DNA of 27,570 nt from positions 1-27,570 of the IMG/VR virus record IMGVR_UViG_3300044647_003122, one strand, 5' to 3'. Positions 4,176 to 27,190 of the stretch are shown here, piece by piece. How positions within the stretch are numbered: position 1 is the stretch's first letter; each line of letters begins with the position of its first letter. A program made the translations under genes and the position numbers. The stretch is from a virus. The notes beneath the pieces were generated by a model, which was given only the letters and a program-made list of their open reading frames with translations, had not been told where the DNA came from and searched no databases.

Positions 4176-4253
4176 TCAATTTGGAAGGCAGGAAGGCAGG
4201 AAGGGAACCGGGCCGGTCTGCTCGGTTCCTGCTTTCCTGTCTTCCAGATTCAT
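4176..4253 (-). repeat. Element B hairpin, 'empty' form, encoding a 25-codon frame
   Basis: This is a complete inverted repeat. On the minus strand the purine arm (ATGAATCTGGAAGACAGG and onward) is followed by a short GC centre and the pyrimidine arm (TTCCTGCCTTCCTGCC). The ATG at 4253 overlaps the TGA of the upstream 60-residue gene in ATGA. It opens a 25-codon frame starting MNLEDRKAGTEQTG, closed by TGA at 4176, eight bases before the next gene's ATG at 4168. No gene lies between the arms, in contrast to the copies that flank genes elsewhere in the window. Confidence 0.75.
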
Positions 4254-4432
4254 TCCCTTCCGCCGGCTGCCTTCACGTAGTCGGCTTCGGTCTTGGCGTT
4301 GAGGGCTTGCAGTTCGGCGATCTGCTCGGGCGTGAGTTCGCCGCGTTGCTTCAGCAGCCGGAGAACATCGATGGCAAACGGCGCAAGAGCCTTGGCGGCT
4401 TCGATGGCAAGCGGGATGGCGATGGCAGTCAT
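4250..4432 (-). CDS. Small amphipathic protein in the lysis-like cluster (60 aa)
   Basis: The start is fixed by an ATGA overlap with the stop of the upstream lipoprotein-like gene. The protein has a hydrophobic N-terminal half (AIAIPLAIEAAKALAPFAID), then a charged helix (LRLLKQRGELTPEQIAELQALNAKTEADYVK). Similar short proteins occur near phage holin and spanin genes, but I recognise no named family. The N-terminal segment could be membrane-associated, though it is short and contains charged residues. Its own stop overlaps the start of the element B frame. Confidence 0.6.
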   Translation of the reverse strand: MTAIAIPLAIEAAKALAPFAIDVLRLLKQRGELTPEQIAELQALNAKTEADYVKAAGGRE

Positions 4433-4881
4433 TTGGCGAAGGCGTTGACGGTGGTTTCGAGGTTGGTGAGCAGGCTCAGCACCTGGCCGGCGGCCGGTTG
4501 CTGCGTGTCGTAGCGGGCGGCGGCAAAGGCGGTGGCCCATGCGGCGGAGAACTTCCGCCGCGCATCGTCCACTTGGAGCCGGCGTTCGAGGAGCTTCGCG
4601 TGGGCGGCTTCGCGCTGGCCATCGGGCAAGGCATCGGCGCGCTTCTGTTCGCGCACCACGTAGCCGGCCCACAGCTTCATGGCGGCGTCGGCCCCGTATT
4701 GGATGCCGGCGAGGGTCTTTTGGCTGTTGGCTTTGGTGGAAGCGCATCCGGCAAAGAAACAGCCTATGCCAAGCAGCATGAGGCAAAGGAGTATCTTGCC
4801 CAGATGGTCCTCAATCCACCATTCCACTTTGTCGTGCCACGGAATCGGGCGGCCGTAGATGTCGGTTTTTGGGGTCTTCAT
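4429..4881 (-). CDS. Membrane or lipoprotein-like protein, spanin candidate (150 aa)
   Basis: A charged N-terminus of about 29 residues (IYGRPIPWHDKVEWWIEDH) precedes a hydrophobic segment at about residues 30 to 45 (ILLCLMLLGIGCFFAG). The segment ends in a lipobox-like FAGC (Cys46) followed by STK. The remainder is helical and Gln/Arg-rich. This could be an exported lipoprotein or an Rz-like inner-membrane protein. The n-region is longer than is usual for lipoproteins, so processing is uncertain. It lies in a chain of small overlapping membrane-protein genes, which fits a lysis cassette. The assignment is an inference. Confidence 0.6.
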   Translation of the reverse strand: MKTPKTDIYGRPIPWHDKVEWWIEDHLGKILLCLMLLGIGCFFAGCASTKANSQKTLAGIQYGADAAMKLWAGYVVREQKRADALPDGQREAAHAKLLERRLQVDDARRKFSAAWATAFAAARYDTQQPAAGQVLSLLTNLETTVNAFAK

Positions 4882-5192
4882 GGTTTTGGAATGTTCACCG
4901 TTTGGCCGGTCCGGGCTTGGAGCGGGAGTTTCACGCTGGCGATGTAGTCGGCGAGGAAAGCAAGCAGGCGATAGGTGCGGCTGGCGAACAGGGCGTTAAT
5001 GCGGTCCACGGCATCGGCGTCCTTGGTCGAGACGCTGAATTCCACGAAGGCCGCGATGGCTTCCTCCAGCTTGCCGGAAACCAGCTTGAAGGCGACGCGG
5101 GCGGTGCCGATCCACGTCAGCGCGGCGGCGAGCCAGCCGTGTTTGGCGGAATAGGTATCAAGCAGGCCGGCAATGAGCGTTTCTTCGTTCAT
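4878..5192 (-). CDS. Hypothetical protein in the lysis-like cluster (104 aa)
   Basis: This 104-residue helical protein has one moderately hydrophobic region (HGWLAAALTWIGTARVAFKL), then acidic and aromatic helices, and ends IPKP. The hydrophobic stretch is not clearly transmembrane. Both ends overlap neighbours: ATGA with the holin-like gene upstream (5192..5189) and ATGA with the lipoprotein-like gene downstream (4881..4878). This argues for a coupled translation unit. I do not recognise the family. A role with the adjacent XhlA-like membrane protein is plausible from position alone. Confidence 0.62.
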   Translation of the reverse strand: MNEETLIAGLLDTYSAKHGWLAAALTWIGTARVAFKLVSGKLEEAIAAFVEFSVSTKDADAVDRINALFASRTYRLLAFLADYIASVKLPLQARTGQTVNIPKP

Positions 5193-5548
5193 CGTTGTTG
5201 GGTGTTGATGCTAGCACGCACGGAATCGAGGGAGGATTTGATGACCCAGCCGCCGATGGTGATGCCGAGGAAGCTGAGAATGCCGATGACCAGACCCACG
5301 ACCGCGACGTGGACGCGTTGCTCGGACTTGAGGTTGTGCAGTTCGGCGGTGATGTCGGTCTTCAGAGTGTGCATTTGGTTGTTGTGTGCCTCCCAGCGGC
5401 CCCGGGCTTCCTTCTCAAAATCATCCAAGCGCGCCTCGGTGCGGTTGGCTTGTTCCCGCAGCGCGTCTACTACCGGCTCCAGATGGGTGAGTCGGTCGGC
5501 CATTGCGTTCAGGCGTTTCCATACGTCGCCCTGGCTGATGGGTGCCAT
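5189..5548 (-). CDS. Holin / XhlA-like coiled-coil membrane protein (119 aa)
   Basis: Residues of about 10 to 78 form a coiled coil with heptad spacing (LTHLEPVVDALREQANRTEA, then MHTLKTDITAELHNLKSE). One clear transmembrane helix follows (VAVVGLVIGILSFLGITIGG, about 82 to 101), with a short tail. This layout matches the small XhlA-type or holin-accessory proteins of phage lysis cassettes, which sit in the inner membrane. It lacks the two or three helices of class I/II holins, so it may be an accessory. It starts two bases after the upstream stop (TGAAATG). Confidence 0.62.
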   Translation of the reverse strand: MAPISQGDVWKRLNAMADRLTHLEPVVDALREQANRTEARLDDFEKEARGRWEAHNNQMHTLKTDITAELHNLKSEQRVHVAVVGLVIGILSFLGITIGGWVIKSSLDSVRASINTQQR

Positions 5549-5549
5549 T

Positions 5550-5930
5550 TCATGGTTGTGTAAACATTGTGGGCGAGTAAGTCGCGAGGCCGTGGGTGGC
5601 GAGGAACTCGAAGGGTGCGGCGCCGTTGGTGAGGTCGTAGTCCAGCACCAGCGTCACGCCGGCAAACGGCGGCGTGTTGGCCAACACGTTGAGCTTGGCG
5701 CGATTGGTTGCGGAGAACGGCGTCGCGCACCAGAAGTGCGTCACGTTGGTTGCGGGCAACGTGACCAGCGCCGCGGTGAACGTGAACTCGCCGCCAAGCG
5801 GATCGAACTCTGCCTTGGCCACCGCGTTGGCCGCGTCGCGGAGGTGCGCGGGAACGATGATGACCGTGGAGGTTTGCGCCAACAGCGCGAGCGGGAGTAT
5901 TGCGAGCAGGATGGCAAGGATGATTCTCAT
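5550..5930 (-). CDS. Exported hypothetical protein (126 aa)
   Basis: The N-terminus MRIILAILLAILPLALLAQT is a clear Sec signal peptide with probable cleavage after ALLA. The mature part of about 107 residues is beta-rich (TSTVIIVPAHLRDAANAV, GGEFTFTAALVTLPATN) and has a single Cys. I recognise no family. It is translationally coupled by ATGA (5930..5927) to the upstream LamG-like exported protein. Phage structural proteins normally have no Sec signal, so this may be an envelope protein made by the lysogen or during lysis. Confidence 0.7.
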   Translation of the reverse strand: MRIILAILLAILPLALLAQTSTVIIVPAHLRDAANAVAKAEFDPLGGEFTFTAALVTLPATNVTHFWCATPFSATNRAKLNVLANTPPFAGVTLVLDYDLTNGAAPFEFLATHGLATYSPTMFTQP

Positions 5931-6685
5931 GGCGCAGGGGTCCCATATTTCTCAGCTGACCGTAGGTAAGCCTCCACGTTCTGCCGCTCCGTCGTGGTCA
6001 GTGTTCGGTTGTAGAAGATCAGCTCGGCCACATAGACGGCTGAAAACTCAAAGTTTGACCGCGCAAACAGCCGGTCAAAGTCAGTTGTGCCGGTGGCGGA
6101 GGCCGCGGTCAGGGTTTGAGCCGTTCCATCCACCCACGCATTGAGCGTTCCCGACGCATCCTGGCCGGTGAGCACGTGCCACGCATGGCTTGGGATTGTG
6201 GCGTGTTTCTGGTCTGTCCTCGATGCGACATAAAGCCGAGAGAGTGAGCCGTATTCGATCGGGCTGTAGGGGGGAGTGATTGACGCCGTTGCCAGCGCGT
6301 AGCCCAGCGACCCGCTGGCCGAGCGTTTCTGCACCGAGAACACGGTCCAACTGGCCGTTGAGGATACGGACGCGGAAAGGGTCATCAGGTCGTTTACGCC
6401 GTCCGCGAGCACTGCATTGTGCCCATTGACTTCGCCGGTCTGAAGCGTGGGGCGCGAAGCGAGCGTGGCTTGCGTCGCGTTAATCGTGGTCGGGGTGCGC
6501 GCTGACCATGTTTGCACCGTGTCGCCATCGGCCCCGGAAATGTCATCGGCAACCAGCCAGATCGTGAGCCCGGAAACGTCGGCCGGGCTGAATGCCGCCG
6601 CGCTCGCCCCGTTCTGCGCAAAGAACAGCGGCGTCGGCGCGTAGCAGCGGAGCGCGAGCAGGAGGGAAAGGAGGAGCGTTTTCAT
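5927..6685 (-). CDS. Exported LamG / concanavalin A-like lectin-fold protein (252 aa)
   Basis: The N-terminus MKTLLLSLLLALRCYA looks like a signal peptide. The body is a beta-sandwich pattern typical of LamG/concanavalin A-like domains: LTIWLVADDISGADGDTVQTW, WTVFSVQKRS, HAWHVLTGQDASGTLNAWVD, and the closing AELIFYNRTLTTTERQNVEA, which is characteristic of LamG-type domains in exported and phage tail proteins. Such domains usually bind carbohydrates. Its start overlaps the stop of the embedded Rz1-like lipoprotein frame (ATGA at 6685..6682). It could be a receptor-binding or adhesion protein; the signal peptide argues for export. Confidence 0.72.
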   Translation of the reverse strand: MKTLLLSLLLALRCYAPTPLFFAQNGASAAAFSPADVSGLTIWLVADDISGADGDTVQTWSARTPTTINATQATLASRPTLQTGEVNGHNAVLADGVNDLMTLSASVSSTASWTVFSVQKRSASGSLGYALATASITPPYSPIEYGSLSRLYVASRTDQKHATIPSHAWHVLTGQDASGTLNAWVDGTAQTLTAASATGTTDFDRLFARSNFEFSAVYVAELIFYNRTLTTTERQNVEAYLRSAEKYGTPAP

Positions 6686-6804
6686 CGCATGGCGGGTGGG
6701 TTATACGTGGGCGGTGTCTTACATCCGCACGCGAGTCCACACAGCAAAACCATCAGCAGGAGTGACCAAGCCCGTCTGGGGTTCAAACGCATAGAGTATT
6801 TCAT
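6682..6804 (-). CDS. Embedded Rz1-like small lipoprotein (40 aa), spanin candidate
   Basis: This 40-codon frame begins inside the 3' end of the papain-like gene, in another frame, and ends with a stop overlapping the ATG of the LamG-like gene (ATGA). The peptide has a basic start (MKYSMRLNPRRAW), a hydrophobic core (SLLLMVLLCGLACGC) and a short proline-rich tail (KTPPTYNPPAMR). This layout is that of Rz1-type outer-membrane spanin lipoproteins, which are often encoded out of frame within a neighbouring gene. The lipobox is not perfect (ACGC or GLAC) and no strong ribosome site precedes 6804. A shorter start exists at 6792. Confidence 0.5.
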   Translation of the reverse strand: MKYSMRLNPRRAWSLLLMVLLCGLACGCKTPPTYNPPAMR

Positions 6805-7117
6805 CGGAGCACAGGCAGAGGTTGAGTGAATGGGCAGAGCGTTCCTGCAAGCAGGACGCTTCTCCAAAAGTGTGACCGGCATCGCGCAAGCCAGCTTTGA
6901 CCAATGCAAGGTCTGCTTCGTGCGCGGCCCAGCGGGCAAACTGCTCGCAGTCGAATGTTTCCGGGATAAACTCCAGTTTGTTGCCGGCGATGTAGCCACC
7001 AAACTCCCGCAACCATTCCGGCGATGGCGCGACGTAAGCCGAGTCCATGAGCACGATGTCGCGCACGCCAATGGCACGCAGCTTCGTGTAGATCAGTTCG
7101 ATGGAAACAGCGTTCAT
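6719..7117 (-). CDS. Papain-like cysteine peptidase-type protein (132 aa), endolysin candidate
   Basis: The protein carries FDCEQFARWA (Cys57), HSLNL (His96, Asn99) and FEPQTG (Glu112), in the Cys-His-acid order seen in the MOA-lectin C-terminal (Agglutinin_C-like) papain-fold domain found in many phage proteins. It has no signal peptide. No other endolysin candidate is visible in the window, so a cell-wall or virion-associated proteolytic role is possible, but activity cannot be judged from sequence. It starts one base after the upstream tailspike stop (TGAGATG). Its last 86 bases overlap the Rz1-like frame. Confidence 0.65.
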   Translation of the reverse strand: MNAVSIELIYTKLRAIGVRDIVLMDSAYVAPSPEWLREFGGYIAGNKLEFIPETFDCEQFARWAAHEADLALVKAGLRDAGHTFGEASCLQERSAHSLNLCLCSDEILYAFEPQTGLVTPADGFAVWTRVRM

Positions 7118-7118
7118 C

Positions 7119-10100
7119 TCAGTAAGCTCCCAGGTTGACCGACACGCGGTTGGTGCCGCCGACCGGAACGACGCTCCACGCGAGTTCCGCCCAGCCGTTC
7201 GTGGCGCCGGTAATCGTGAGTGTGGTTGAGCCCGTCGCCGTGGCGGCGGAGCTGCCCGCGGCGCGGCCGGGTGAACTGACGAGAATGGTTCGGTTGGTGG
7301 TGTCAGGAATCAGATGCACCACGCCGCCGTCGTTGTCCGTCAACCCGGACCAGAGCAACTGGAAGTTGTTCGTGACCGTCAGCACGCTGCGTTGGTTTGG
7401 CCCTTTGCCGGCGGTGATGGTGACGTTGGTGCCCCCTGAGTAGGTGAGCGTCTCGGTCGTGGGCTTGAGCGCGACCTGAACGCCTTCAACGGCTAACTGC
7501 CCAGCACTCAACCGCGAAAGCGTGGTGTCAGAGGCGTGGCCGAGTTCGATTGTAGTGCTCGCCGCCAACGTGCCAGACACACTGGCCGAACCCGTGACGG
7601 CGGCATAGTTCCCGCCCAGTTGCAACACGGTGCCACGGCTGGTTGAGTTGTTCGGAGTCGTCTTGAAATTGATCAGCGTTTCATTGTTGGTCGGGCTCCA
7701 CGTCTGAAAGCTGGTCAATATCTCTATCTCAGCCGCAGCCCCGGACGCCGCGCTGCCGTTGTAACCTCCGGCCTGAAATGTGTAGATGGTATCATACCCA
7801 GTCAGGCCCGCCGGAGCGGATGGCGTCCCGTTAAAACGATAAGCGATGTCGCGCACACCGTAGGCGGTTCCCTTGGAAGCGGCGTAGGCATTTCGCGTCT
7901 GCGTGGAGAGCGAACCGATGCTGGTCAGTATCAGCGGCGTGTTGTTGGTCTGCATCAGCGTCATCGTTCCGGCAGTGTCCACTTGCACCGAGCCGGTTGC
8001 GTCGGTCGGGTAGAATTGCCACCGCTGCCACTTGGTCCCGTCGTGCCAGTAGAGCAGGCGGTTCGACGCATCGAAGGTGAGCGGGATTTGTCCTGAAACT
8101 GCGGTCGGCGTTCCGGCCGGCGTGCCAGTCGTGCCGGGCACATACAGGAAGCCCGTGGTCGCCGATGAGGAAAGCGAGGCGCGCCCAACGACCACGTTGC
8201 CGTCCGGCGTGAACACATCCGGCAGCGCCAGCGCGGTGGCGCTGTCAATCACCACGGGCCAGTCCTGATTCACGTAAACATTGTCGCGCACCACGTTCCC
8301 GACCGTGTTGGTCATCAGCACTCCGATAGCGGACTGGCTTGCGCTCCGCGTGCGCCCCATCGTCGCATCGGTGACGATGTTGGTGCCGCCTCCCGTGATG
8401 AGGACCGACGGAATGTTGGTCGCGTTGTTGTATCCCGCCTCCGCCAGATTCGCCGATACCTTGTTCCAATAGCTTTGATCTAGCCGAACTGCGGAGCCGT
8501 AACTCTGGTCAAAGCGGCCACCGAGCACTTCGTTGTCATCGCCCTTAAAGATGGTGATGTTTGCTTCCGCCGGCACGTAGGGAAACACGCGCCACGAACC
8601 GGAGCCGCCCGTCGTGAGGTCCAGTTTCACACCTTGCAACGCACCGCCGGCCGCGCCTTGGTCGTATTGGCTATTCACGCCGAACGTGTCCGCATCCACC
8701 CGCACAACGAAATACAGCGTCGATTCCGACAGCGGACTCGGCAGCGTGCCGCCGTTGGCGCTGAACCGGACCGGCATTCCGGTGTAGAAGCGATAACTCG
8801 CGGACGTGAACGTATCGGCGCCCGTGTCCACCGTTGGCGCCGTCAACGCGGTGCTGAATGCCTGGGCGTTCCAGATGAAGTTGCCGTTGATCTTGTTCTT
8901 GTTGCCGTAGATGAACAGGCCCACGCCTTCAAAACCGCCATAATCGCAGTCGGTCACGTAGCTGTCGGCGGTCTGAATCACGTAGGGCGGACGCATGACG
9001 CCGATGGATCGCGTCCCGTGAATCTTTTTAATCTCGATTCCGTTGCCCTGATAAACGCGAAACATCGGGCCGTCCCATTGTTGCAGGGTAAGATTTTCCG
9101 CCGTGACATTGCTGACCTTGTAGATGTCCAGCGGCGTGGCGTATCGCACCGCGCTCGCGTCCAGCCACAAGTCCCGGACCGACGCGCCCGTGAAGTAATT
9201 CGTGCCGTAGGAACCGTCGCCGAACGTCGTGTTCAGGTTGCGATACGTCGTGTCCGAATTGGCCGCATTGATGGACACCAGATTACTCACGCTGGTCGCC
9301 GACCAGAGCAGCGAGAGCTTGACCGGGTTATTCATCCGCGGCGATTCGCCAGACCATTGCGACGGCGCGACGCCGACCAGCGAAACGCGGGTTGGGATGT
9401 TGATCTGCTGCCCGCTGAAATACTGCCCGCCACCCAGCGTCACAGCGCCGATGCCCGCCGCCTTGGCGTAATCCAGCGCCGCCTGAATCGCCGGGCCAGA
9501 GTCGGTGAAGCTGGTCGCCGTGTTAAGTGAGGAAACGGTGGCAGTGTAATTGGTCGCGCTGCCGGCCGCCGCGATTTGGGCGAGCGTGAGCGCGGAGCCA
9601 AAGGTGCGGATTTCAAACACCGGCTGTCGCGGCAAATTGGCCGACGTGGGCGACGTGGACAGGATGCCGGTCGTCGCGCCGTTGCCAATCTCGCCGGCCA
9701 AGTCCGACGAATTGGTTATCGCGAAGCTGGACGTGATGTCGTTGGTCCCGCGGTAGACTTTGAACACGCCGTTGGTGCGGGCGATGGTGACTTGGATTCG
9801 CGTCCCTTGGTAAGCGAGGAACGGGTTGGGCGTGGCCGTCAGCTTGCCGGCGCCGCTGCCGGTTGAGCTGCTGCCGCTGGTGCCGCGGACCAGAACCTCG
9901 AAATAATTTGTCGCGCCGTAGGCTTCCACGTCACGGCCAAGCCCGGAACTCCCCTGCCAGCGGAGCACACCCTCGGCGAAAGTCGTGTCGCTCGAATACG
10001 TCGGAACCTGCCAGTCCATCCACACGGAGAAGTCCGCCGTGCCCGGCATGTTGGTTGAAAGCGACTCGTTGAAGTAGGGCGAGTAGGCGACCTTGTAGGG

Positions 10101-10763: not shown

Positions 10764-10777
10764 CCCTCAGCGCCGCC

Positions 10778-10790
10778 GCCGTCCATGGTG
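10778..10790 (-). promoter_or_regulatory. CACCATGGACGGC box, copy 2
   Basis: The minus strand reads CACCATGGACGGC, then a GC-rich spacer and GAGGG just before the ATG of the tailspike gene at 10763. It follows the C and B repeat arms at 10801..10859. Confidence 0.6.
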
Positions 10791-10800
10791 CGGAAGAATT

Positions 10801-10827
10801 GAACAGCGAAGGCGCGAAGGCGCGAAG
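10801..10827. repeat. Element C (GCGAAGGCGCGAAG type), copy 1
   Basis: The forward strand reads GAACAGCGAAGGCGCGAAGG and continues with another CGCGAAG unit. Related copies are at 25710..25735 and 26834..26860, with an inverted copy at 27193..27213. It lies between the methyltransferase stop and the tailspike start, next to an element B arm. Confidence 0.7.
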
Positions 10828-10834
10828 AAGATCA

Positions 10835-10859
10835 ATCTGGAAGGCAGGAAGGCAGGAAC
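10835..10859 (-). repeat. Element B pyrimidine arm, 3' flank of the methyltransferase gene
   Basis: The forward strand reads ATCTGGAAGGCAGGAAGG and onward. It is the inverted partner of the arm at 11643..11669, so the two arms bracket the whole methyltransferase gene. It lies 15 bases after the gene's stop. Confidence 0.7.
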
Positions 10860-10874
10860 GGAAAGACGGGCTCT

Positions 10875-11669
10875 TTAAAGGAGGACGCCTTGGCGGGCCT
10901 CGCGTTCGAGGCGCTCGACGGCGGTGGCAAAGTGTTTTGGGTCTTTCTCGATGCCGATGAAGTTCCGGCCCGTGCGCAGGCAGGCGACGCCGGTCGTGCC
11001 GCTGCCCATGAACGGGTCGAGAACGGTTTCGGCTTTTGCCGTGTGCTGCTGGATAAAGCGTTGCACTAGCTCCACGGGCTTCACATTCGGATGCAAATCG
11101 CCGCGGGGTTTGCTGATCCGCATCACGTTTGGCTGCGCCGGATAGTCATCGTTCCATGCCAGCTTTCCGCCTTTCCGATGCGAAACCATGATCATCTCGT
11201 GCTGCCGGCGATATCGCCACCCGAGGCCGGGATTCATTTTGTCCCAGATGATCGAGTGAAAAAACTCCAAGCCGGAGCAGTCCATACGATTTGCCACCCA
11301 GGCAAACGTGGGCCGCGGGCCGCCGCCGCCGCAGCAGCAGCAGCAGCAGCAGCAGCAGTCAGGCCGCAAAACGCGCGCCGCTTCAGTCAGCATCCCGTCC
11401 ACGACTGCGCGCATTTCCAATGGGCCATCGTTTTCGATTGGGCTGCCAGCGATTTCGCGGTAGTCGTTCAGCCTGGCATTTAGGTCGCCGACGTGATTCG
11501 AGTGACCGTATGGCGGATCCGTCCAAATCATTTCGACCGAGTCGCTTTTGAAGGACGCAAGCACGGTGAGGCAGTCCCCACGAAACAGCGTGGCGGTCAA
11601 ATCGCCGAGCGTGATCCGCACCGGCTCTGTGCTCTCGGCTGTTCCTGCTTTCCTGACTTCCAAATTCAT
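10875..11669 (-). CDS. Beta-class DNA methyltransferase with poly-Cys tract (264 aa)
   Basis: This protein transfers a methyl group from S-adenosylmethionine to adenine-N6 or cytosine-N4 in DNA. The catalytic motif TDPPYGHSN (about residues 50 to 58) comes before the AdoMet-binding motif VLDPFMGSGTTG in the C-terminal third, the beta-class order. Residues of about 105 to 113 are nine consecutive cysteines encoded by a pure TGC repeat, followed by GGGGP. The start at 11669 overlaps the previous stop (ATGA). The first nine residues, MNLEVRKAG, are encoded by element B. No restriction endonuclease is adjacent, so an orphan enzyme that protects phage DNA is the likeliest role. Confidence 0.88.
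   Translation of the reverse strand: MNLEVRKAGTAESTEPVRITLGDLTATLFRGDCLTVLASFKSDSVEMIWTDPPYGHSNHVGDLNARLNDYREIAGSPIENDGPLEMRAVVDGMLTEAARVLRPDCCCCCCCCCGGGGPRPTFAWVANRMDCSGLEFFHSIIWDKMNPGLGWRYRRQHEMIMVSHRKGGKLAWNDDYPAQPNVMRISKPRGDLHPNVKPVELVQRFIQQHTAKAETVLDPFMGSGTTGVACLRTGRNFIGIEKDPKHFATAVERLEREARQGVLL
11331..11357. repeat. Pure CAG/TGC trinucleotide microsatellite (9 units)
   Basis: Nine perfect GCA units on the plus strand lie directly beside four GCC units. Inside the methyltransferase they read as nine Cys followed by four Gly codons. Slippage in steps of three would change protein length without breaking the frame. Confidence 0.9.
11643..11669 (-). repeat. Element B purine arm, 5' flank and start of the methyltransferase gene
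   Basis: On the minus strand it reads ATGAATTTGGAAGTCAGG and onward. It begins at the ATGA junction with the upstream Cys-rich gene and supplies the first codons of the methyltransferase. Its inverted partner is at 10835..10859. Confidence 0.7.
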
Positions 11670-11899: not shown

Positions 11900-11902
11900 G
11901 GG

Positions 11903-15968: not shown

Positions 15969-16041
15969 CGAAGGCAGAAGGGGGAATGAAGAATGCAGAA
16001 ACCGGCCGGCCGCGCCCTTCTTCATTCTGCATTCTGCCTTC
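15969..16041 (-). repeat. Element A hairpin, copy 2
   Basis: On the minus strand the arm GAAGGCAGAATGCAGAATG and onward is followed by a GGCCGGCCGG-type centre and the arm TTTCTGCATTCTTCATTC. It begins directly after the TAA of the connector gene (16042..16044). The arms pair over most of their length, so it could act as a stem-loop in the mRNA, but there is no T-tract of a standard terminator. Confidence 0.78.
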
Positions 16042-16848
16042 TTACTTCACCCGGGCACCGGCCTTGCGCGCCGCCGCGGCGGTGGCGGCTTCGACCTGGG
16101 CGCGGAGATTCCGCAGCCGGTTCCGATAGGCGCGGTTCATGATGTTGGCGGTTTGATCCAGCTTCTGCGCATAGCCCAGCGCATTGCCGACGATGATGGA
16201 GCGGTTGTCGCCACGGCCTTGCTCCGTGAAGATGCCCGGCTCCTCGTGGCGCGTGATCCAGCGGGGCAGGCGCAGACCGAGCGCATCGGCGGCGCGTTTC
16301 CAGCCGGCCTTAGCCCGGCCGACGAGGGCTTGCTGGGAGCGGAGCAGGCGCACGATGGAGCGGCCATCGCGCACCAGCACGCGGCGACCGCGAACGACCC
16401 GCCCGCGGCGGTCCCGGTGGCGGTTCAGGACTTCGACCGTCGCCGTGGCTTCGATGCTCTCGACCCGCACGCCGGCCCGGTCCAGCACCTGGAGCGCGGT
16501 GCCGTATTGCCCGGCGCGGAGCAGGCCCCGCAGATTGACCGCCATTCGCCCTTCTCCCTTGGCCATTTCCAAGTCGTCGAAACTCAGAAACAGGCGGCGA
16601 ATGTCGCGCGCCACGGCGTCCTGCCCCTGCTTGCGGGCAGACAGGGAATTGCCTGGGAGGCTGGTCGCATTGCGGGCGGTGCCGGCCGCGCCGAGGGGAT
16701 TGCCGCCGGTCGGCGGCGTCAGCGCGCAGGCATCGGCCACGAACAGGCGAGTTTGCGCCCGGAGCAGTTCGCCCGTGTCCTTGCGGACCACGCGGCTGAG
16801 CCGGTCCAGTTGTTTGGCAAAATCGCGCTGGTCGAATTGGAAGTCCAT
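16042..16848 (-). CDS. Head-tail connector / minor head protein, HK97 gp10-like by position (268 aa)
   Basis: The N-terminus MDFQFDQRDFAKQLDRLSRV and the pattern KDTGELLRAQTRLFVADACALTPP resemble gp10-type tail completion and connector proteins, which open with a helix carrying a 'DTGELL'-like segment. The C-terminal third is strongly basic and helical (NIMNRAYRNRLRNLRAQVEA). It also contains VGRAKAGWKRAADALG. At 268 residues it is longer than a standard gp10 protein of about 120 to 150, so extra domains are present. It follows the 110-residue connector gene by one base (TAACATG). The function is inferred from synteny. Confidence 0.6.
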   Translation of the reverse strand: MDFQFDQRDFAKQLDRLSRVVRKDTGELLRAQTRLFVADACALTPPTGGNPLGAAGTARNATSLPGNSLSARKQGQDAVARDIRRLFLSFDDLEMAKGEGRMAVNLRGLLRAGQYGTALQVLDRAGVRVESIEATATVEVLNRHRDRRGRVVRGRRVLVRDGRSIVRLLRSQQALVGRAKAGWKRAADALGLRLPRWITRHEEPGIFTEQGRGDNRSIIVGNALGYAQKLDQTANIMNRAYRNRLRNLRAQVEAATAAAARKAGARVK

Positions 16849-17184: not shown

Positions 17185-17216
17185 GAAGGCAGAAGGGAGA
17201 ATGAAGAAGGCAGAAG
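17185..17216 (-). repeat. Element A single arm
   Basis: Only the pyrimidine arm is present on the minus strand (GCCTTCTGCCTTCTTCATTC and onward), between the SSB stop and the next start. The purine arm is missing, so this is a half-copy of the A hairpin. Confidence 0.6.
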
Positions 17217-17218
17217 GC

Positions 17219-17635: not shown

Positions 17636-17636
17636 T

Positions 17637-18770: not shown

Positions 18771-18806
18771 GCCTTCATTCTGTGTGCCTTCGGTGGAGTC
18801 TCCGCC

Positions 18807-18840: not shown

Positions 18841-18872
18841 CCGGCATGAGTTCCGATCGGGAAGGCGGCCGA

Positions 18873-19301: not shown

Positions 19302-19333
19302 GTTCTTGGGTAGTTAGGGGTCGCTTGGGTGAG

Positions 19334-20257: not shown

Positions 20258-20275
20258 GAATCGTTTGGTTTGGGT

Positions 20276-20761: not shown

Positions 20762-20788
20762 CGTAGTTTTTGCATAGGTTTTCCGACG

Positions 20789-21649: not shown

Positions 21650-23235
21650 GCGTTGGGATCGTTAAGCGTGATGGCGGGCTCCATCGGCTGGCCGACCTCG
21701 ACGTCGGGATTGAAGATGGCCGTGGGCGGCACGCCGGTTTCGGTGGCGATGCGTTCGCGGAGCAGCCAGTCGTTGGCCCGGCGGCGGAGCAGTTCCTCGG
21801 CGGTGCTGCCGTCTTCCTCGGCGATCTCGCTGAGCGAACGCAGGCCCATGGCGACGTCGGCGCGGCGGTTCTGGCTGTCGCGGCCGATGTCCACGCTGGG
21901 CTTGCTGGGCAGCGTGAAGGCGAGGTTCCACCAATCCCGCGTGAAGGGCAGCGCGCCCGTGCCCAGGAAGGCGCCGGTCGCGTAGAGCACGGCGGACAGC
22001 AGCGGCGTCCAGAGGGCGTCCTGCCGCTGGGCGACGCTGCGCTGGATCTGGCCCATGACCGAGCGCACGGCCGCGCCGCCGATCTTGCTCATGTCGTGCA
22101 TGTCAATCGGCCAGCCGAGGCCGCGATGCGCGCTGCGGGCAATGTGATCGAGGAAGTCGGCCAAATCGCGGTTCGGCCGCTCGGGCTGGAAGGCTTCGAG
22201 CTTGTGCCCGGCGTTCGCCTTGAAGTAACGGATCAGGCCGGCGGAGATGACTTTGTTGCGCGTGTCGATGTCGTCGAGGGACGTCACGCCGGAGCCGGCG
22301 GCGAGGTGCGCGTTCGGCAGGCCGGCGCGGCCGGATTCGTTGCTCTCGATCATGGCCACGCGGGCGGTGGCCTTCGTGGCGATCTTCTCGGCCTCGCGGA
22401 TTTCGCTGAGGTCATACCAATCGAGGATGCCGTAGATCAGGCTCGGGATGCCGCGGCCTTGCGAATACCATTCGGGATCGAAGCCATGAATCACGGACTC
22501 GGCCGGCAGGAACTGGTATTGGTCGCGGACGCGGGCGCTGTAGGGCAGCAGGAAGGCGTCCGGCTGGACGAGATTATACGCCAGAGGGCGCATGAAGTCG
22601 TCGTAGACGATGCCGTTGAGGAAGATGCTGCCGGCCTTGAGCAGGCGGCCATTCGGCAGGCGCACGTCGAGCGGCAGGAGCGTTTCGCCCCAGGGCGAGC
22701 CGACGCGGTGCGCCTCCAGGAATTGCAGGCGCGGTTCGCCGGCCTCGTTCTTCGTGAGCAGGATGAAGAAGTCGCCGTCGGTGTCGAAACACTTGCAGGC
22801 GATGTGCGCGTTGCGGGCGAGCGAGAAGGGCCGGCCGCGCAGGTCGCAGTTTTCGGTCCAGCGCGACATGGTCGCATTGAAGGCGTCGGCGAAGGTCTTG
22901 TCGGCGCCGAGATAGACGGGGCGCCAGGCCGAGCCGATGGTGTAATCGGCCTTCTCCTTGACCGCGCCGCGGACCTGTCCGTTGCTGGTGTAGATGTAGC
23001 GGCCATCGGAGACCATCGCCCGATGGCGGAATTGCGTGACGAGCCGGGCGATGTCGCGGCCGACCTCAGGCCGCCAGCCGCGTTGCGTGCCGTCCTGGCT
23101 GCCCGGGTAAAGGAACTGCCCGACGCCGCCGGTATTGCTGCCATCGGTGGCGACCGCCTGAATCCGGCCGGCGCCGCGATTCCCCCGCGGGGAGGCAACG
23201 CGGCGCGGACGGGCGGCGGACTTCGGCGACGACAT
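21646..23235 (-). CDS. Portal protein, lambda gpB-like (529 aa)
   Basis: The portal forms the dodecameric DNA channel at one head vertex. Features of the lambda-type family are visible: an Arg-rich N-terminus, RGWRPEVGRDIARLVTQFRH, AVKEKADYTIGSAWRPVYLG, DGDFFILLTKNEAGEPRLQF, VIHGFDPEWYSQGRGIPSLI and LAAGSGVTSLDDIDTRNK. 529 residues is a normal length. It lies between the gpW-like and protease genes as in lambda-like head operons. The start at 23235 is 22 bases after a CACCATGGACGGC box. About 246 bases of repeat-rich DNA separate it from the upstream gene. Confidence 0.92.
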   Translation of the reverse strand: MSSPKSAARPRRVASPRGNRGAGRIQAVATDGSNTGGVGQFLYPGSQDGTQRGWRPEVGRDIARLVTQFRHRAMVSDGRYIYTSNGQVRGAVKEKADYTIGSAWRPVYLGADKTFADAFNATMSRWTENCDLRGRPFSLARNAHIACKCFDTDGDFFILLTKNEAGEPRLQFLEAHRVGSPWGETLLPLDVRLPNGRLLKAGSIFLNGIVYDDFMRPLAYNLVQPDAFLLPYSARVRDQYQFLPAESVIHGFDPEWYSQGRGIPSLIYGILDWYDLSEIREAEKIATKATARVAMIESNESGRAGLPNAHLAAGSGVTSLDDIDTRNKVISAGLIRYFKANAGHKLEAFQPERPNRDLADFLDHIARSAHRGLGWPIDMHDMSKIGGAAVRSVMGQIQRSVAQRQDALWTPLLSAVLYATGAFLGTGALPFTRDWWNLAFTLPSKPSVDIGRDSQNRRADVAMGLRSLSEIAEEDGSTAEELLRRRANDWLLRERIATETGVPPTAIFNPDVEVGQPMEPAITLNDPNA

Positions 23236-23248
23236 GCCTAGCGCGGCG

Positions 23249-23262
23249 GCCGTCCATGGTGG
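23249..23262 (-). promoter_or_regulatory. CACCATGGACGGC box, copy 5 (before the portal gene)
   Basis: The minus strand reads CCACCATGGACGGC, then a nine-base spacer, AGGC and the portal ATG, with the same 22-base spacing as copies 3 and 6. Confidence 0.62.
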
Positions 23263-23283
23263 AAAGGGGCGAAGACCGGATCA

Positions 23284-23469
23284 ATCTGGAAGGCAGGAAG
23301 GCAGGAAGGGAAACCAAATTTTCCCGCGCTGTTGTTACGCCGACGGGTAGCGGCCGGGGTTTACTTTTACCCGACTGCGCAGACTTCGGGCACGTTCCCC
23401 TGTCTGCTCATTTGCCCGGGTTACGGGCAAGGCTTTCTATGTTCCTGCTTTCCTGCCTTCCAAATTCAT
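23284..23469 (-). repeat. Element B pair with 130-bp palindromic insert (portal leader)
   Basis: The stretch between the gpW-like and portal genes holds an element B pair: purine arm 23441..23469 and inverted pyrimidine arm 23284..23309. Between them are about 130 bases with no substantial gene. The insert has its own palindromes, including TTGCCCG (23412..23418) paired with CGGGCAA (23424..23430), and CGGGTA (23344..23349) with TACCCG (23368..23373). It may be a regulatory leader for the portal gene, or the remnant of a lost cassette. Confidence 0.7.
23437..23469 (-). CDS. Possible 10-residue leader peptide MNLEGRKAGT
   Basis: This is an 11-codon frame (MNLEGRKAGT then TAG) encoded by an element B purine arm. 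GGAGGAA lies directly in front of the ATG. It begins 12 bases after the stop of the gpW-like gene. Translation is unproven. Support comes from the same peptide start in three other copies of the element. Confidence 0.35.
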   Translation of the reverse strand: MNLEGRKAGT

Positions 23470-23481
23470 TTCCTCCGGTTG

Positions 23482-23754
23482 TTACCTTGCCGAGAAGACC
23501 TGTTCGTTGGGCATGACCAGGGCGTCGTCATCGACCCATGCGAGGGCTTCCTGGAGGGCGGCGATTTCCTCGGCGACGGTCATGCCGCCGCGGGGATCGT
23601 ATTGCCAGGCCTTGCCGTTCACGCTGGCGCTGGTGATCTGGCCTTCGCCGGGCGTCCGCGCGATCAGGTAAGCCTTGAGGGTCGCGAGCCGGGTGTTGAT
23701 CTCGGTCGCGGTCCACCCGAGGAACGGACCCGCGGGAACGGTAGCCAATGCCAT
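23482..23754 (-). CDS. gpW-like head-tail joining protein (90 aa)
   Basis: This is a small helix-strand-helix protein (TATEINTRLATLKAYLIART, EIAALQEALAWVDDD) between the terminase and portal genes, the exact position of lambda gpW. The central SASVNGKAWQYDPRGGMTVA is similar to the turn region of gpW-family joining proteins. It probably plugs the portal after packaging. The start is 22 bases after box copy 6 and downstream of element A copy 3. At 90 residues it is slightly longer than lambda gpW (68). Confidence 0.75.
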   Translation of the reverse strand: MALATVPAGPFLGWTATEINTRLATLKAYLIARTPGEGQITSASVNGKAWQYDPRGGMTVAEEIAALQEALAWVDDDALVMPNEQVFSAR

Positions 23755-23767
23755 GCCCTACGCGCCC

Positions 23768-23781
23768 GCCGTCCATGGTGG
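23768..23781 (-). promoter_or_regulatory. CACCATGGACGGC box, copy 6
   Basis: The minus strand reads CCACCATGGACGGC, followed by GGGCGCGTA, GGGC and the ATG of the gpW-like gene at 23754. It lies directly after the element A hairpin at 23795..23883. Confidence 0.62.
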
Positions 23782-23794
23782 CCGCCAAGCGGCC

Positions 23795-23883
23795 TGAAGG
23801 CAGAAGGGGGAATGAAGAATGCAGAAACCCCGGCAGGCCGGCCCCATCTTTATTCTTCATTCTGCATTCTGCATTCTTCATTC
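23795..23883 (-). repeat. Element A hairpin, copy 3
   Basis: On the minus strand the purine arm GAATGAAGAATGCAGAATG and onward starts at the terminase stop codon, which is the TGA within GAATGAAGAATG. A centre GGCCGGCCTGCCGGGG and the arm TTTCTGCATTCTTCATTC follow. It is the closest match to copy 2 at 15969..16041. Confidence 0.78.
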
Positions 23884-25644
23884 CTCACTCTCCGCCGTGC
23901 TGGTGGCCGTCAGCAGGCCGCACATGCTGGCGCTGATCACCTGGCCGCATTCCATGTCGAAGGCGTGGTTGTCCGGGCGCAGCTTCTTCCATTCGTAGAA
24001 CCAGCCGTTGTTCTTCGGGTGGCGCTTGCGGATCTTGGCCTCGGCGTAGGCTTGTTCGACGTATTCGCTGGGCGCGTTGCGGGCAATGGTCCAGAGCGGT
24101 TTGCCGTCGGCGCTGCGGGCCTGCCGGAGCGTGTCGAGCCGGTCCTTGGCGCCTTCGGACGCGTAATGGAAACCGACGCACCATTGCATGCCCTGATTCG
24201 ACCGGCCGAGGAAGGGGTCGATGGTGCGCGGCTCGCCGAAGATGCGGCGCACGCCGTCGTGATGCGGGAAGGCCCGGGCCGAGACGCCGTTCGCGCAGAG
24301 GAAATGGTAGGCGGTGCAGATCTGGTGCACGAGGTCGGCGTTGTAGGCCTCGTCGAGCACGACGTGATTCGGCGGGATGCCGAGGCGGTTGCGCAGGGCC
24401 TCGATCTGGCTGCCTTCCCAGAGGCGCTCGAAGTGCAGCAGGCGGCTTTGCGCGTTGGGGCTCCATTGCCGGGCGACGGCCCAGAAGTGATCGCGCTGCA
24501 CGTCGACCCAGAGGAAACGCATCGGCGCGCCGTCGGCCATCTTGCCCTCGTCGGCCCACGGATCACCGAGGTCGTAGTCGCCCACGGGCAGGTCGTTCGT
24601 GCGGCGCGTGACCTTCATGGGATCCCACGACTCGACGCGTTTCTTGCGGTAGAAGTCCTCGGTGGCCTCCAGGCTGCCGCGGCGTTTGGCGTTGCAGGCC
24701 GCCAGCCATTCGCCGACGAGCTGGCGCCAGTCGCGCATGAGGAAGGCGTTGCCGCGCCAGAAGTGGACCTGTGGGTCGGGCGCGGGATTGCCCTGCACGT
24801 AGCCGGCGCCGCGGGCAGGGTCGTTGAGTTCGCGCAGGGTCTTGGGATCGTAGAGCGTGACCTGATTGCACGCGGGGCAATGCCAGCGGGCGGTGAGCTT
24901 GGCGACCTCGATCTTCCAGGAGCCGTCGGGCTCGCGGGTGTGCTCGTCGCTGTCCCACTTGATGCCGCCGGGCGAATCGGGTTCGCCGAATTCCAGCGGC
25001 ACGCGCTCGCGGCAATGCAGGCAGACGACGTGCCAGTTCATCTGACTCGACGTGCGCCAGAGCACATCGACCTCGTCGTCGACGCTCGGGGCGGTCGTGG
25101 CGAGGATGATCTGGCGCTGCCATTGGTAGGAATCGGACCGGGCGATGATCTCGGGGATCCAGCCGGGCTCGAATTGCCAGGGCTCGTCGAGGTAGATGGT
25201 GCGGCCGGAGCGGCTGTTGCGATGGTTGCGATTTTCGGCGCCGAGCAGACTGAAGGGCGCGTCGATGGCCTTCCAGATCTGCTTGCCGCCGCGCGCATCG
25301 GGATCGTGCGGGAAGTGGGCCATGACGGCGGGCACGCTGTCGCGCAGGGGGCAGAGCTTTTCGTCGGCGAGATCGGCGGCGTCCTTGCCGTTCAGGCAGT
25401 AGAAGAGCTGGCGGCCGGGCTCGACGGCGATGTTGCGGAGCGCGCGCATCTGGAGAAACAGGGTCTTGAAGACCTGCGGCGGGAACATGAGGCCGAACGT
25501 GCAGCCGCGCCGGCGGTCGACCTCGCGGGCAATGGGCCCGAGCCAGGGGAAGTCGGCCGCCCGAAACGCGCCGTCGCCGACACGGAGGTTGCGCTCGGCC
25601 CATTCGAGGGTGCCAATGAAGCGGGGCGGAGGAAGCGAGGACAT
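23878..25644 (-). CDS. Terminase large subunit, GpA-like (588 aa)
   Basis: This is the ATP-driven DNA packaging motor and nuclease. Residues of about 53 to 61, MFPPQVFKT, form the Walker A-like loop of GpA-type terminases, with the usual Gly before KT replaced by Phe. IYLDE (about 150 to 154) is Walker B. Two CxxC pairs, CLHC (208 to 211) and CPAC (256 to 259), form a zinc-knuckle region. The nuclease-side strand LWVDVQRDHFW and the C-terminal segment YEWKKLRPDNHAFDMECGQV are typical of the family. It precedes the gpW-like and portal genes. No clear small subunit is adjacent. Confidence 0.93.
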   Translation of the reverse strand: MSSLPPPRFIGTLEWAERNLRVGDGAFRAADFPWLGPIAREVDRRRGCTFGLMFPPQVFKTLFLQMRALRNIAVEPGRQLFYCLNGKDAADLADEKLCPLRDSVPAVMAHFPHDPDARGGKQIWKAIDAPFSLLGAENRNHRNSRSGRTIYLDEPWQFEPGWIPEIIARSDSYQWQRQIILATTAPSVDDEVDVLWRTSSQMNWHVVCLHCRERVPLEFGEPDSPGGIKWDSDEHTREPDGSWKIEVAKLTARWHCPACNQVTLYDPKTLRELNDPARGAGYVQGNPAPDPQVHFWRGNAFLMRDWRQLVGEWLAACNAKRRGSLEATEDFYRKKRVESWDPMKVTRRTNDLPVGDYDLGDPWADEGKMADGAPMRFLWVDVQRDHFWAVARQWSPNAQSRLLHFERLWEGSQIEALRNRLGIPPNHVVLDEAYNADLVHQICTAYHFLCANGVSARAFPHHDGVRRIFGEPRTIDPFLGRSNQGMQWCVGFHYASEGAKDRLDTLRQARSADGKPLWTIARNAPSEYVEQAYAEAKIRKRHPKNNGWFYEWKKLRPDNHAFDMECGQVISASMCGLLTATSTAESEE

Positions 25645-25646
25645 TG

Positions 25647-25671
25647 AATTTGGAAGGCAGGAAATCAGGAA
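25647..25671 (-). repeat. Element B pyrimidine arm, 3' flank of the 85-residue gene
   Basis: The forward strand reads AATTTGGAAGGCAGGAAATC and onward. It is the inverted partner of the arm at 25928..25957, and supplies the stop codon (TGA in TTCCTGATTTCC on the minus strand) of the gene between them. Confidence 0.68.
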
Positions 25672-25922
25672 TCTGAGGCAGGGAGCGGGGAGCTAGGAGC
25701 GGGGAGACCAACAGCGAAGACGCGAAGGCGCGAAAAGGACGAATTCTTCATGCGGCGGCGCCATTTGTTGATGCGGCGGGCAAAGGGTCGGTTAACCTCA
25801 CGTTCCCACCGCTTGGCCAGACTGATGTCGTTGGCGAGGTCGAGGCCGGTGACGCTGTCCCAGTCGATGTTGGCATCCGTCGCCTTCGGAGCGGTGCGGA
25901 AGAATTCAAGCTGTGCCGTCAT
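25665..25922 (-). CDS. Small unknown protein with a repeat-encoded tail (85 aa)
   Basis: The first 58 residues (MTAQLEFFRTAPKATDANID, DLANDISLAKRWEREVNRPF, INKWRRRM) are helical and basic. The remaining residues, NSSFSRLRVFAVGLPAPSSP and onward, are encoded by elements C and B and a tandem direct repeat. AGGAA lies eight bases before the ATG. The start overlaps the stop of the MNLEGRKTGTDA leader frame (ATGA). It is immediately upstream of the terminase large subunit, a common place for a small terminase subunit, but it is shorter than usual, so the function is open. Confidence 0.55.
   Translation of the reverse strand: MTAQLEFFRTAPKATDANIDWDSVTGLDLANDISLAKRWEREVNRPFARRINKWRRRMKNSSFSRLRVFAVGLPAPSSPLPASDS
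25682..25706. repeat. Tandem GGAGCGGGGAG direct repeat
   Basis: Two perfect 11-base copies, GGAGCGGGGAG, are separated by CTA. The repeat lies inside the repeat-derived 3' end of the 85-residue frame, between element B and element C arms. Confidence 0.75.
25710..25735. repeat. Element C, copy 2
   Basis: The forward strand reads AACAGCGAAGACGCGAAGGC and then GCGAAA. It encodes part of the C-terminus (RLRVFAV) of the 85-residue frame on the minus strand. Confidence 0.72.
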
Positions 25923-25957
25923 GCGTCGGTTCCTGTTTTCCTGCCTTCCAGATTCAT
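25919..25957 (-). CDS. Possible 12-residue leader peptide MNLEGRKTGTDA
   Basis: The ATG at 25957 overlaps the methyltransferase stop (TGATG). The 12-codon frame ends in a TGA that overlaps the ATG of the 85-residue gene (ATGA). It is encoded by an element B purine arm. Such perfect coupling at both ends is suggestive, but translation is not shown. Confidence 0.4.
   Translation of the reverse strand: MNLEGRKTGTDA
25928..25957 (-). repeat. Element B purine arm, 5' flank of the 85-residue gene
   Basis: On the minus strand it reads ATGAATCTGGAAGGCAGG and onward. It starts at the methyltransferase stop codon. Its inverted partner is at 25647..25671. Confidence 0.7.
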
Positions 25958-26826
25958 CAAAGCGGGAATCCCGGAGTCGTGGCGGCGAGGCGGGCGCGGG
26001 CCTGGGCGACGTAGGCGGGATTGAGTTCGAGGCCGATGGCGCGCCGGCCGTGGGCGTAGGCGACCGCCAGGGTCGTGCCGGTGCCGCAGAAGGGATCAAG
26101 CACGAGGTCGCCGGGGCGCGTGCCGGCGAGGATGCAGCGTTGCGCGAGGGCGCGGGGCATGATGGCCGGGTGCCGGGCGTAGGCGGCGGAGTCCTGATCG
26201 GGCGCGAGGGCCCATTGGTTGCGGCCATTGCGCCGGCCGCCGAGGTCGTCGGGTTCGCTGAGGGCCGCGGCGTCGAAGTAGTAGCCGGGGCCGCAACTGA
26301 AGAGGAAGACGCGCTCGTCGGTGCGCGTGGGCCGGTCGGTTGGGTTTTCGATGAGGCCGCGGGTTTTGGTCCAGACGATTTCGCTGCGGCAGGTGAAGCC
26401 CTGGGCGAGCATCGCCAGGAGGAAGCGCGAGGGCAGGCCGAGCAGGGTCTTTTCCGGCAGGGACTTGTCGCGGATGCCCCAGTCGGCATCGTTCATGACG
26501 TCGGCGAGGTTGATCCAGAGGGTGCTTTGCGGGGTGAGGCAGGTGTCGCGGAGCAGGGCGAACAGGCGGGCAAGGCGCTGGGCGTAGGCGTCGGGCGTGG
26601 ATTCCCAGCCGATTTCGCAGACCGCGGCGTTGGTGTAACGATGGACTGACCAATAGGGCGGGCTGGTGACGATGGCCTGCACGGGCGCCCGGGCGGCGAG
26701 GCCGAACAGGACGGCGGTTTCCTCACACGAATCAGACCAGACCTCGGGCACGGGCATGGCCCGGCGCGGGGCCTCGGCCGGCGCGCTGGCGACAGGCTCG
26801 GGGGCAAGTTCGGGGAAGAGGGTCAT
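25957..26826 (-). CDS. Beta-class DNA methyltransferase (289 aa)
   Basis: The catalytic motif VTSPPYWSV (SPPY at 55 to 58) precedes the AdoMet-binding motif LDPFCGTGTTLAVAY near residue 245, the beta-class order used by cytosine-N4 and adenine-N6 enzymes. Between them are STLWINLADVMNDADWG and FTCRSEIVWTKTRGLIENP, typical for the family. The ATG at 26826 (MTLFPELAPEPVAS) is preferred to the longer frame, whose extra codons come from elements B and C. There is no adjacent restriction gene, so it is probably an orphan enzyme that protects phage DNA or a regulator. Confidence 0.9.
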   Translation of the reverse strand: MTLFPELAPEPVASAPAEAPRRAMPVPEVWSDSCEETAVLFGLAARAPVQAIVTSPPYWSVHRYTNAAVCEIGWESTPDAYAQRLARLFALLRDTCLTPQSTLWINLADVMNDADWGIRDKSLPEKTLLGLPSRFLLAMLAQGFTCRSEIVWTKTRGLIENPTDRPTRTDERVFLFSCGPGYYFDAAALSEPDDLGGRRNGRNQWALAPDQDSAAYARHPAIMPRALAQRCILAGTRPGDLVLDPFCGTGTTLAVAYAHGRRAIGLELNPAYVAQARARLAATTPGFPL

Positions 26827-26833
26827 GGATTTT

Positions 26834-26885
26834 GAACAGCGAAGACGCGAAGGCGCGAAGAATTTGGAAGGCAGGAAATCAGGAA
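26834..26885. repeat. Element C copy 3 plus element B arm (left composite arm)
   Basis: Element C (26834..26860, GAACAGCGAAGACGCGAAGG and onward) is followed by a B arm (26861..26885, AATTTGGAAGGCAGGAAATC and onward). With 27151..27213 it forms a nested inverted repeat around the 103-residue gene. Confidence 0.72.
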
Positions 26886-27190
26886 ACGGCCCAAGGTTGG
26901 TCGCCCGGGCCAATGTAGATTTGTTGCGCATCTTCAATGGTCTTGTGCTCCCGGCAAACGATGGAATCCATTTCATTCCTTAGCTGCAACAGGGCCGAGT
27001 GAGCTGCGTTCGCGCGAAGGCCGCCGAGTTCGGAACTTTTCCACAAACCGAAAGCCCAAAGAAACACGATTGCTTCGTTTGCCGTCCTCAGGGCGCGACC
27101 AAGTTCCCGGTGTTGCTCCAGCGTGAGTTGGGGCGGCCTTCTGCTTTTGCTTTTCCTGCATTCCTGCTTTCCAGATTGTTTTGCCTTCAT
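26879..27190 (-). CDS. Small unknown protein between inverted repeat arms (103 aa)
   Basis: The start at 27190 gives MKAKQSGKQECRKSKSRR, in which residues 5 to 16 are encoded by a diverged element B purine arm. The native-looking part follows: LTLEQHRELGRALRTANEAI, then VFLWAFGLWKSSELGGLRAN and an amphipathic helix LLQLRNEMDSIV. There is a weakly hydrophobic segment but no clear transmembrane helix. The stop is the TGA inside the pyrimidine arm (TTTCCTGATTTCC). I recognise no family. It is flanked on both sides by the B and C arms. Confidence 0.6.
   Translation of the reverse strand: MKAKQSGKQECRKSKSRRPPQLTLEQHRELGRALRTANEAIVFLWAFGLWKSSELGGLRANAAHSALLQLRNEMDSIVCREHKTIEDAQQIYIGPGDQPWAVS

What the first reader, a model, noticed from the sequence alone, without database searches (positions are those of the whole stretch)
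4176..27180. Element B: a start-codon module inserted at gene junctions, present in empty and gene-loaded forms
The purine arms at 4253, 11669, 23469 and 25957 all begin at or within about a dozen bases of an upstream stop codon. They all encode a peptide beginning MNLE(G/V/D)RK(A/T)GT. A matching inverted pyrimidine arm lies directly after the purine arm (4176, no gene between), after a 130-bp non-coding insert (23284), after a small gene (25647) or after a whole methyltransferase gene (10835). The 103-residue gene at 26879..27190 has the same layout with a diverged purine arm. This looks like a modular cassette flanked by inverted repeats, with an empty counterpart. It could carry accessory genes into phage operons while supplying a start codon, SD-like purines and an RNA hairpin. 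I know of no named element with this design. Passive decay of host repeats is the simpler alternative.
Basis: partly seen in the sequence, partly recalled or inferred. Interest (0 to 1): 0.78.

Follow-up and report, generated by a model that had tools for sequence, protein, structure and literature searches.

The report
Hairpin-bounded swappable gene slots in phages
In a group of viruses that probably infect Verrucomicrobia, short mirror-image repeats mark several joints between genes, and at those joints (but not at unmarked ones) related viruses have swapped whole accessory genes, so each repeat looks like a gene slot that also lends the newcomer a translation start site.

Summary
Five pairs of facing ~25-bp purine/pyrimidine arms (family B) lie at the stated places, in the strict order ><><><><><, and flank nothing, a 134-bp non-coding piece, a DNA methyltransferase gene or small genes. 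Three further arm families (N, C, S) sit at the same or other junctions. Flanking core genes are about 83-100% identical, yet the content between arms differs at six of the nine arm-bearing junctions and at none of 19 covered junctions without arms (p=2e-4). One site holds a small gene, another ORF, a queC pair or a DUF5131 gene; the methyltransferase and the non-coding insert each occupy different sites in different genomes. A second, unrelated phage group shows the same pattern and shares cargo and a tail module with the first. Upstream arms carry ATG/GTG far more often than downstream arms. The arms are rare in Verrucomicrobiota genomes (mostly as empty hairpins) and far denser in these phages. 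Best reading: gene-exchange slots delimited by short homologous hairpin repeats that double as translation starts, comparable to T4 PeSLs and mycobacteriophage SAS. The enzyme is unknown; recombination is inferred.

The parts
4178..4250 (-). J1: empty B hairpin (arms 4178-4202 and 4226-4250, loop 24 nt; upstream arm ATG complement ends 4253). G007 has the 135-nt loop here. Also a breakpoint of a tail module shared with unrelated phages.
10802..10858 (+). J2: N arm (10802-10828) and B downstream arm (10834-10858)
10875..11669 (-). J2 cargo: N6/N4 DNA methyltransferase, 264 aa, whose frame starts at the arm ATG (PF01555 E=2e-29). A C-hairpin allele without the gene is in G003; the gene is at J3 in G012.
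11642..11669 (-). J2: upstream B arm with ATG
23283..23466 (-). J3: B arms 23283-23307 and 23442-23466 around a 134-bp structured non-coding insert; at least six different alleles in relatives
23796..23876 (-). J4: empty C-family hairpin; relatives hold N/B-bounded small genes here
25647..25954 (-). J5: B arms 25647-25671 and 25930-25954, with S and N arm copies inside
25665..25922 (-). J5 cargo: 85-aa gene MTAQLEFF..; replaced by queC plus a second gene (G002-G004), a DUF5131 gene (G007) or another ORF (G005)
26835..27211 (-). J6: N arm 26835-26861, B downstream arm 26861-26885, 103-aa gene 26879-27190, diverged B upstream arm 27153-27177, N arm copy ending 27211; four alleles in relatives
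3959..4040 (-). C-family hairpin at another junction (no length variant seen)
15970..16048 (-). C-family hairpin at another junction (12-bp length difference only)
17185..17215 (+). single C arm at a junction (invariant)

Best explanation
The arms delimit gene-exchange slots at gene junctions of temperate, probably Verrucomicrobia-infecting phages. A slot is a palindromic repeat (B, N, C or S family) that may be empty (hairpin) or have accessory genes between its two arms. SHOWN: in two unrelated phage groups the content between arms has been gained, lost or replaced while the core genes on both sides stay nearly identical; the same cargo occurs at different slots and in unrelated phages; boundaries of change coincide with arm edges; the annotated cargo genes lie on the coding strand; upstream arms carry an ATG/GTG and SD-like purines next to the cargo start. 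INFERRED: exchange happens because the 25-60 bp repeats give short homology shared by all slots of all co-infecting phages and prophages (homologous or strand-annealing recombination, with deletions by arm or illegitimate events), and the arm keeps each newcomer translated by supplying a stop-start/SD context. The arms probably descend from, or are shared with, REP-like hairpins of the host lineage and were amplified in the phages.
For: (a) Length variation of >=30 bp among relatives at 6 of 9 armed junctions against 0 of 19 covered unarmed junctions, Fisher p=2.2e-4. (b) Of 48 distinct structural breaks in two phage groups, 32 have an arm within 40 bp of both edges (random positions: mean 1.9, max 6 in 500). 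(c) Where both alleles have an arm of the same family at an edge, homology usually runs to 0-9 bp of the arm's inner edge; where the families differ it stops close to or outside the outer edge. (d) Same cargo at different slots: methyltransferase J2/J3, non-coding insert J3/J1 (96% over 111 bp); a deleted methyltransferase remnant in a hairpin in G007. (e) Between unrelated groups: queC pair 86% over 1,158 bp, 351-bp cargo 99.4%, tail module 96.5% starting at J1. (f) Clean presence/absence alleles. (g) ATG/GTG on 28/54 upstream against 2/29 downstream arms, p=3e-5; ORF start close to the arm 32/54 against 10/29, p=0.04. (h) Twenty-six homologous methyltransferases in other phages have no arms.
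Against: No recombinase that would do this was identified: the early-region proteins tested gave only a primase/helicase and a weak phage-integrase match below Pfam's cut-off. No arm-free ancestral site was found. Homology running through arms is partly expected because all B arms resemble each other. Arms and breaks both lie at gene joints, so part of the association could be selection for intact genes, although armed and unarmed joints differ. All phage data are metagenome contigs, and G012 right of J4 looks chimeric. Some breaks (tail-fibre region, others in the early region) have no arms.
Confidence: 0.62

Rival explanations
1. Dedicated cassette mobility: arms are ends recognised (perhaps as folded hairpins) by a trans-acting recombinase or transposase, such as a host RAYT-type HUH enzyme or a phage integrase, which moves the cassette as a unit.
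For: Inverted terminal arms around single genes; the same cargo at different slots and in unrelated phages; hairpin forms exist in possible host genomes.
Against: Arms track the site, not the cargo (J5 upstream arm ..AAAACAGG in alleles with four different cargos; methyltransferase arms differ between J2 and J3). Flanks of the window's pairs show no target duplication, and the arms bear no GTAG/CGTC REP tag. One-armed and mixed-family slots (C on one side, B on the other) are common.
Confidence: 0.15
2. Passive scars: host REP-like hairpins inserted at joints, with gene turnover by ordinary illegitimate recombination at gene boundaries; arms are bystanders.
For: Related hairpins exist in a few Verrucomicrobiota genomes; gene-boundary turnover is normal in phages.
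Against: Unarmed joints show no length variants while armed joints do; breaks sit at arm edges; arms are far denser in phages (one per 2.8-6.3 kb) than in the richest genome tested (34 in 5.4 Mb).
Confidence: 0.15
3. Assembly artefact: 25-60 bp repeats join fragments of different phages in metagenome assemblies.
For: All phage relatives are metagenome contigs; G012 switches phage group after J4, next to cargo of several hundred bp shared between the groups.
Against: The same alleles recur in separate records (queC at J5 in G002, G003, G004; non-coding J3 in G000/G001, G002, G004, G009; methyltransferase variant in G003 and G008). Arms are shorter than common assembly word sizes (own knowledge). 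Unarmed joints are collinear.
Confidence: 0.05
4. Regulatory elements only: the repeats are RBS/hairpin elements (terminator, mRNA stabiliser), and recombination at them is a side effect without role.
For: Upstream ATG/SD context; stable hairpins, z -4.9 and -3.2 for J1 and J4.
Against: The downstream arm and the gene-loaded form have no obvious regulatory need; no sigma-70-like promoter matches and terminator-like matches not above shuffles.
Confidence: 0.03

Closest known systems
PeSL (promoter-stem-loop) cassettes of T4-type phages (Arbiol et al. 2010, cited in PMC3950731; original not readable here)
   Same: Dispersed intergenic stem-loops at which phage gene modules are proposed to be shuffled.
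   Different: Here no sigma-70-like promoter was found; arms carry translation-start rather than promoter sequence, can lie more than 1 kb apart around genes, and several repeat families replace each other.
Start-associated sequences (SAS/ESAS), Cluster K mycobacteriophages (PMC3203893)
   Same: Conserved repeats at translation starts of a subset of non-structural genes, with inverted repeats beside about half; rare in the host.
   Different: SAS is a 13-bp RBS-position repeat with 17-bp IRs upstream of the start; no gene is carried between the IRs, and in the passages read no allelic cargo exchange between slots is described.
Cluster O mycobacteriophage repeat-flanked genes (Corndog 14, YungJamal 60; PMC4351075)
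   Same: Single gene present in one phage, flanked by short direct or imperfect inverted repeats, one copy in relatives.
   Different: Isolated cases; here a set of slots sharing the same arms, with multiple alleles per slot and cargo shared between unrelated phages.
Short conserved boundary sequences proposed to mediate phage mosaicism (discussed in PMC3029335)
   Same: Homology at gene joints proposed to target recombination.
   Different: Arms here are multi-copy, palindromic and interchangeable between sites.
REP palindromes with RAYT transposases (PMC3733652)
   Same: Short intergenic palindromes, also in Verrucomicrobia (O. terrae is described as highly enriched in GTAG repeats).
   Different: No GTAG or CGTC tag in the window's B arms; phage-enriched; genes carried between arms.

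Membership tests
T4 PeSL cassettes | promoter plus stem-loop | tested here: not met
   stem-loop yes; no sigma-70-like promoter match in 10700-27570, though other promoter types are not covered
T4 PeSL cassettes | breakpoints of modular exchange at the repeats | tested here: met
SAS/ESAS | repeat at the RBS position of a start codon, one orientation | tested here: inconclusive
   upstream arm bears ATG or is followed closely by a start in many cases, but the arms are longer and come in inverted pairs
REP (GTAG/CGTC) | GTAG or CGTC tag at one end of the palindrome | tested here: not met
   five window arms
REP (GTAG/CGTC) | RAYT transposase in the genome | not tested
   phage and host genomes not searched for HUH transposases
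MITE / composite transposon | terminal inverted repeats | tested here: met
MITE / composite transposon | target-site duplication | tested here: not met
   no shared flanks at the five window pairs; none seen by eye in the allele pairs
Integron gene cassettes | attC at the cassette 3' end and IntI integrase | not tested
   no search for attC/attI or IntI was run; the phage integrase-like protein gave only a weak PF00589 match
Phage boundary sequences | short conserved sequence at mosaic joints present in both partners | tested here: met

The most novel reading that the evidence does not exclude
A dedicated phage gene-cassette system, integron-like in logic: a common pool of cassettes is exchanged between standard hairpin slots in unrelated phages of one host by a recombinase that recognises the folded arms, each slot delivering the cassette in frame behind a ready start/SD.
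Probability: 0.13. Interest if true: 0.9.

Novelty: new variant of a known kind. Interest (0 to 1): 0.68.

Why it matters
Why phage genomes are mosaic mainly at gene borders (homology at border sequences, or random illegitimate events filtered by selection) is a long-standing question. Here the same genomes contain armed and unarmed borders, and only armed ones vary in length in the set tested, so the question becomes directly testable. The slots also show how phages could trade DNA-modification and other accessory genes (N6/N4 and C5 methyltransferases, queC, a DUF5131 gene, a metallophosphoesterase) between unrelated lineages without disturbing the operon.

Tried and rejected
Rfam search of the window: nothing. 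Host as the sole source of the arms: B arms are near background in most of 388 Verrucomicrobiota genomes (max 12 per 5.3 Mb), and N arms occur in 5 of 115, so simple inheritance of an abundant host repeat is unlikely for the sampled hosts; the real host is unknown. Transposition with target duplication: no duplication seen. GTAG/CGTC REP identity: rejected. Arms as a general feature of methyltransferase genes: 26 homologous loci without arms. Nearest cultured relative by terminase, Verrucomicrobia phage P8625 (28.7% identity), has no B, N, C or S arms. Early-region proteins tested: no annealing recombinase by Pfam. Arbiol et al. 2010 could not be opened. Not used: structure prediction, metagenome scans.
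Full report
WHAT WAS CHECKED. The window (27,570 bp) is an IMG/VR viral contig, matching at 100.0% over its full length part of the 38,668-bp record G001, whose ends repeat about 211 bp. It encodes terminase, portal, head protease, a major head protein match and tape measure. The nearest cultured relative by terminase is Verrucomicrobia phage P8625, at 28.7% identity. Genes run on the minus strand.

ARMS. The B consensus AATTTGGAAGGCAGGAAGGCAGGAA was scanned with up to 6 mismatches. The window has exactly ten arms in the order ><><><><><; base-shuffled window sequence had none. Loops are 24, 784, 135, 259 and 268 nt. Other families are N (AACAGCGAAGACGCGAAGGCGCGAAGA), C (GAAGGCAGAAGGCAGAATGAAGAATGCAGAA) and a purine/pyrimidine block S. 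Empty B and C hairpins fold with z about -3 to -5.

RELATIVES. Terminase, portal and arm-pattern searches found related contigs. Group 1 (window, G001-G009, G012) has junction flanks about 83-100% identical. Aligning them to the window breaks at the arms. At J3 (23262-23484) the alleles are: 134-bp non-coding insert; C hairpin only; C hairpin plus methyltransferase; C hairpin plus a methyltransferase with a different middle part; a small ORF with S/N/B arms; phosphoesterase plus a hairpin holding a short remnant of the methyltransferase. At J5: 85-aa gene; queC plus a second gene; DUF5131 gene; another ORF. J4 and J6 have several alleles each. The methyltransferase is at J2 in the window and at J3 in G012 (95% over 772 bp); the non-coding insert is at J3 in the window and J1 in G007 (96% over 111 bp).

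CONTROLS. Breaks and arms both lie at gene joints, so joints were compared with joints. Six of nine armed joints have a relative with a length difference of at least 30 bp; none of 19 covered unarmed joints does (p=2.2e-4). The armed/unarmed classification and gene coordinates were set by hand, after the arms and most breaks had been seen, and many joints are covered by only one or two relatives. Against random positions, 32 of 48 distinct breaks in two phage groups have arms within 40 bp of both edges (mean 1.9, max 6 in 500). If both alleles carry the same arm family at an edge, divergence usually begins 0-9 bp inside the arm; otherwise close to or outside it.

SECOND PHAGE GROUP. G011, G013, G014, G017-G021 have a different backbone. 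They show the same presence/absence alleles, including an empty B hairpin in G018 opposite an N/B-bounded insert in G011. After the helicase gene, one arm (GCCGGCGGAG-AATTTGGAAGGC) is followed by different cargo in G017, G018, G020 and G021, including a C5 methyltransferase (PF00145), a PHROG-annotated methyltransferase and a queC pair. The queC pair (86%), a 351-bp cargo (99.4%) and a tail module starting exactly at J1 (96.5% to G013) are shared with group 1. G012 switches from group 1 to group 2 after J4 and may be a chimeric contig; only its part left of J4 is used as evidence.

START MODULE. ATG or GTG directly precedes 28 of 54 upstream arms but 2 of 29 downstream arms (p=3e-5). An ORF of at least 45 aa starts between the arm and 40 nt past it at 32 of 54 upstream and 10 of 29 downstream arms (p=0.04). 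Arms from related contigs are not independent, so these p-values are optimistic. In several cases (J5 in the window, J4 in G002) the arm ORF is about a dozen codons and ends in ATGA, overlapping the cargo start; in others (J2 in the window, J5 in G005) the arm ATG opens the cargo frame. Translational coupling is inferred.

HOSTS. Exact long B arms were found in 14 stretches of genome contigs, all titled Verrucomicrobia or Spartobacteria, mostly as tight hairpins or single arms. The richest of six tested holds 34 copies (<=3 mismatches) in 5.4 Mb; phages hold one per 2.8-6.3 kb at a somewhat looser setting. The actual host is not identified.

VERDICT. The cassette observation is correct and is strengthened by allelic evidence. 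The mechanism (short-homology exchange at arms, with the arm supplying translation start context) is the most economical reading but is not proven. The kind of thing is known (PeSL, SAS/ESAS, boundary sequences); the combination seen here I have not found described in the papers read.

Noticed in passing
window 11330-11360 (minus-strand methyltransferase): CAG/GCC run encoding nine Cys and four Gly inside the methyltransferase; G012 has one Gly fewer. Possible slippage tract.
   Followed up: no
G003/G008 J3 (L063, L083): The methyltransferase variant shares its start and end with the window's enzyme but has a different middle, suggesting exchange of the target-recognition part.
   Followed up: partly
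L172 (IMGVR 3300024433_000075) 3700-10000: Another viral contig carries C-family arms in five closely facing sets (plus one single) at roughly 0.7-1.6 kb spacing; not examined for allelic variation.
   Followed up: no
G012 (L085) after about 6257: Contig changes from phage group 1 to group 2 beside shared cargo; real recombinant or chimeric assembly.
   Followed up: partly
window 23310-23444: Structured 134-bp non-coding insert (z -2.7) shared between slots; no Rfam match; nature unknown.
   Followed up: partly
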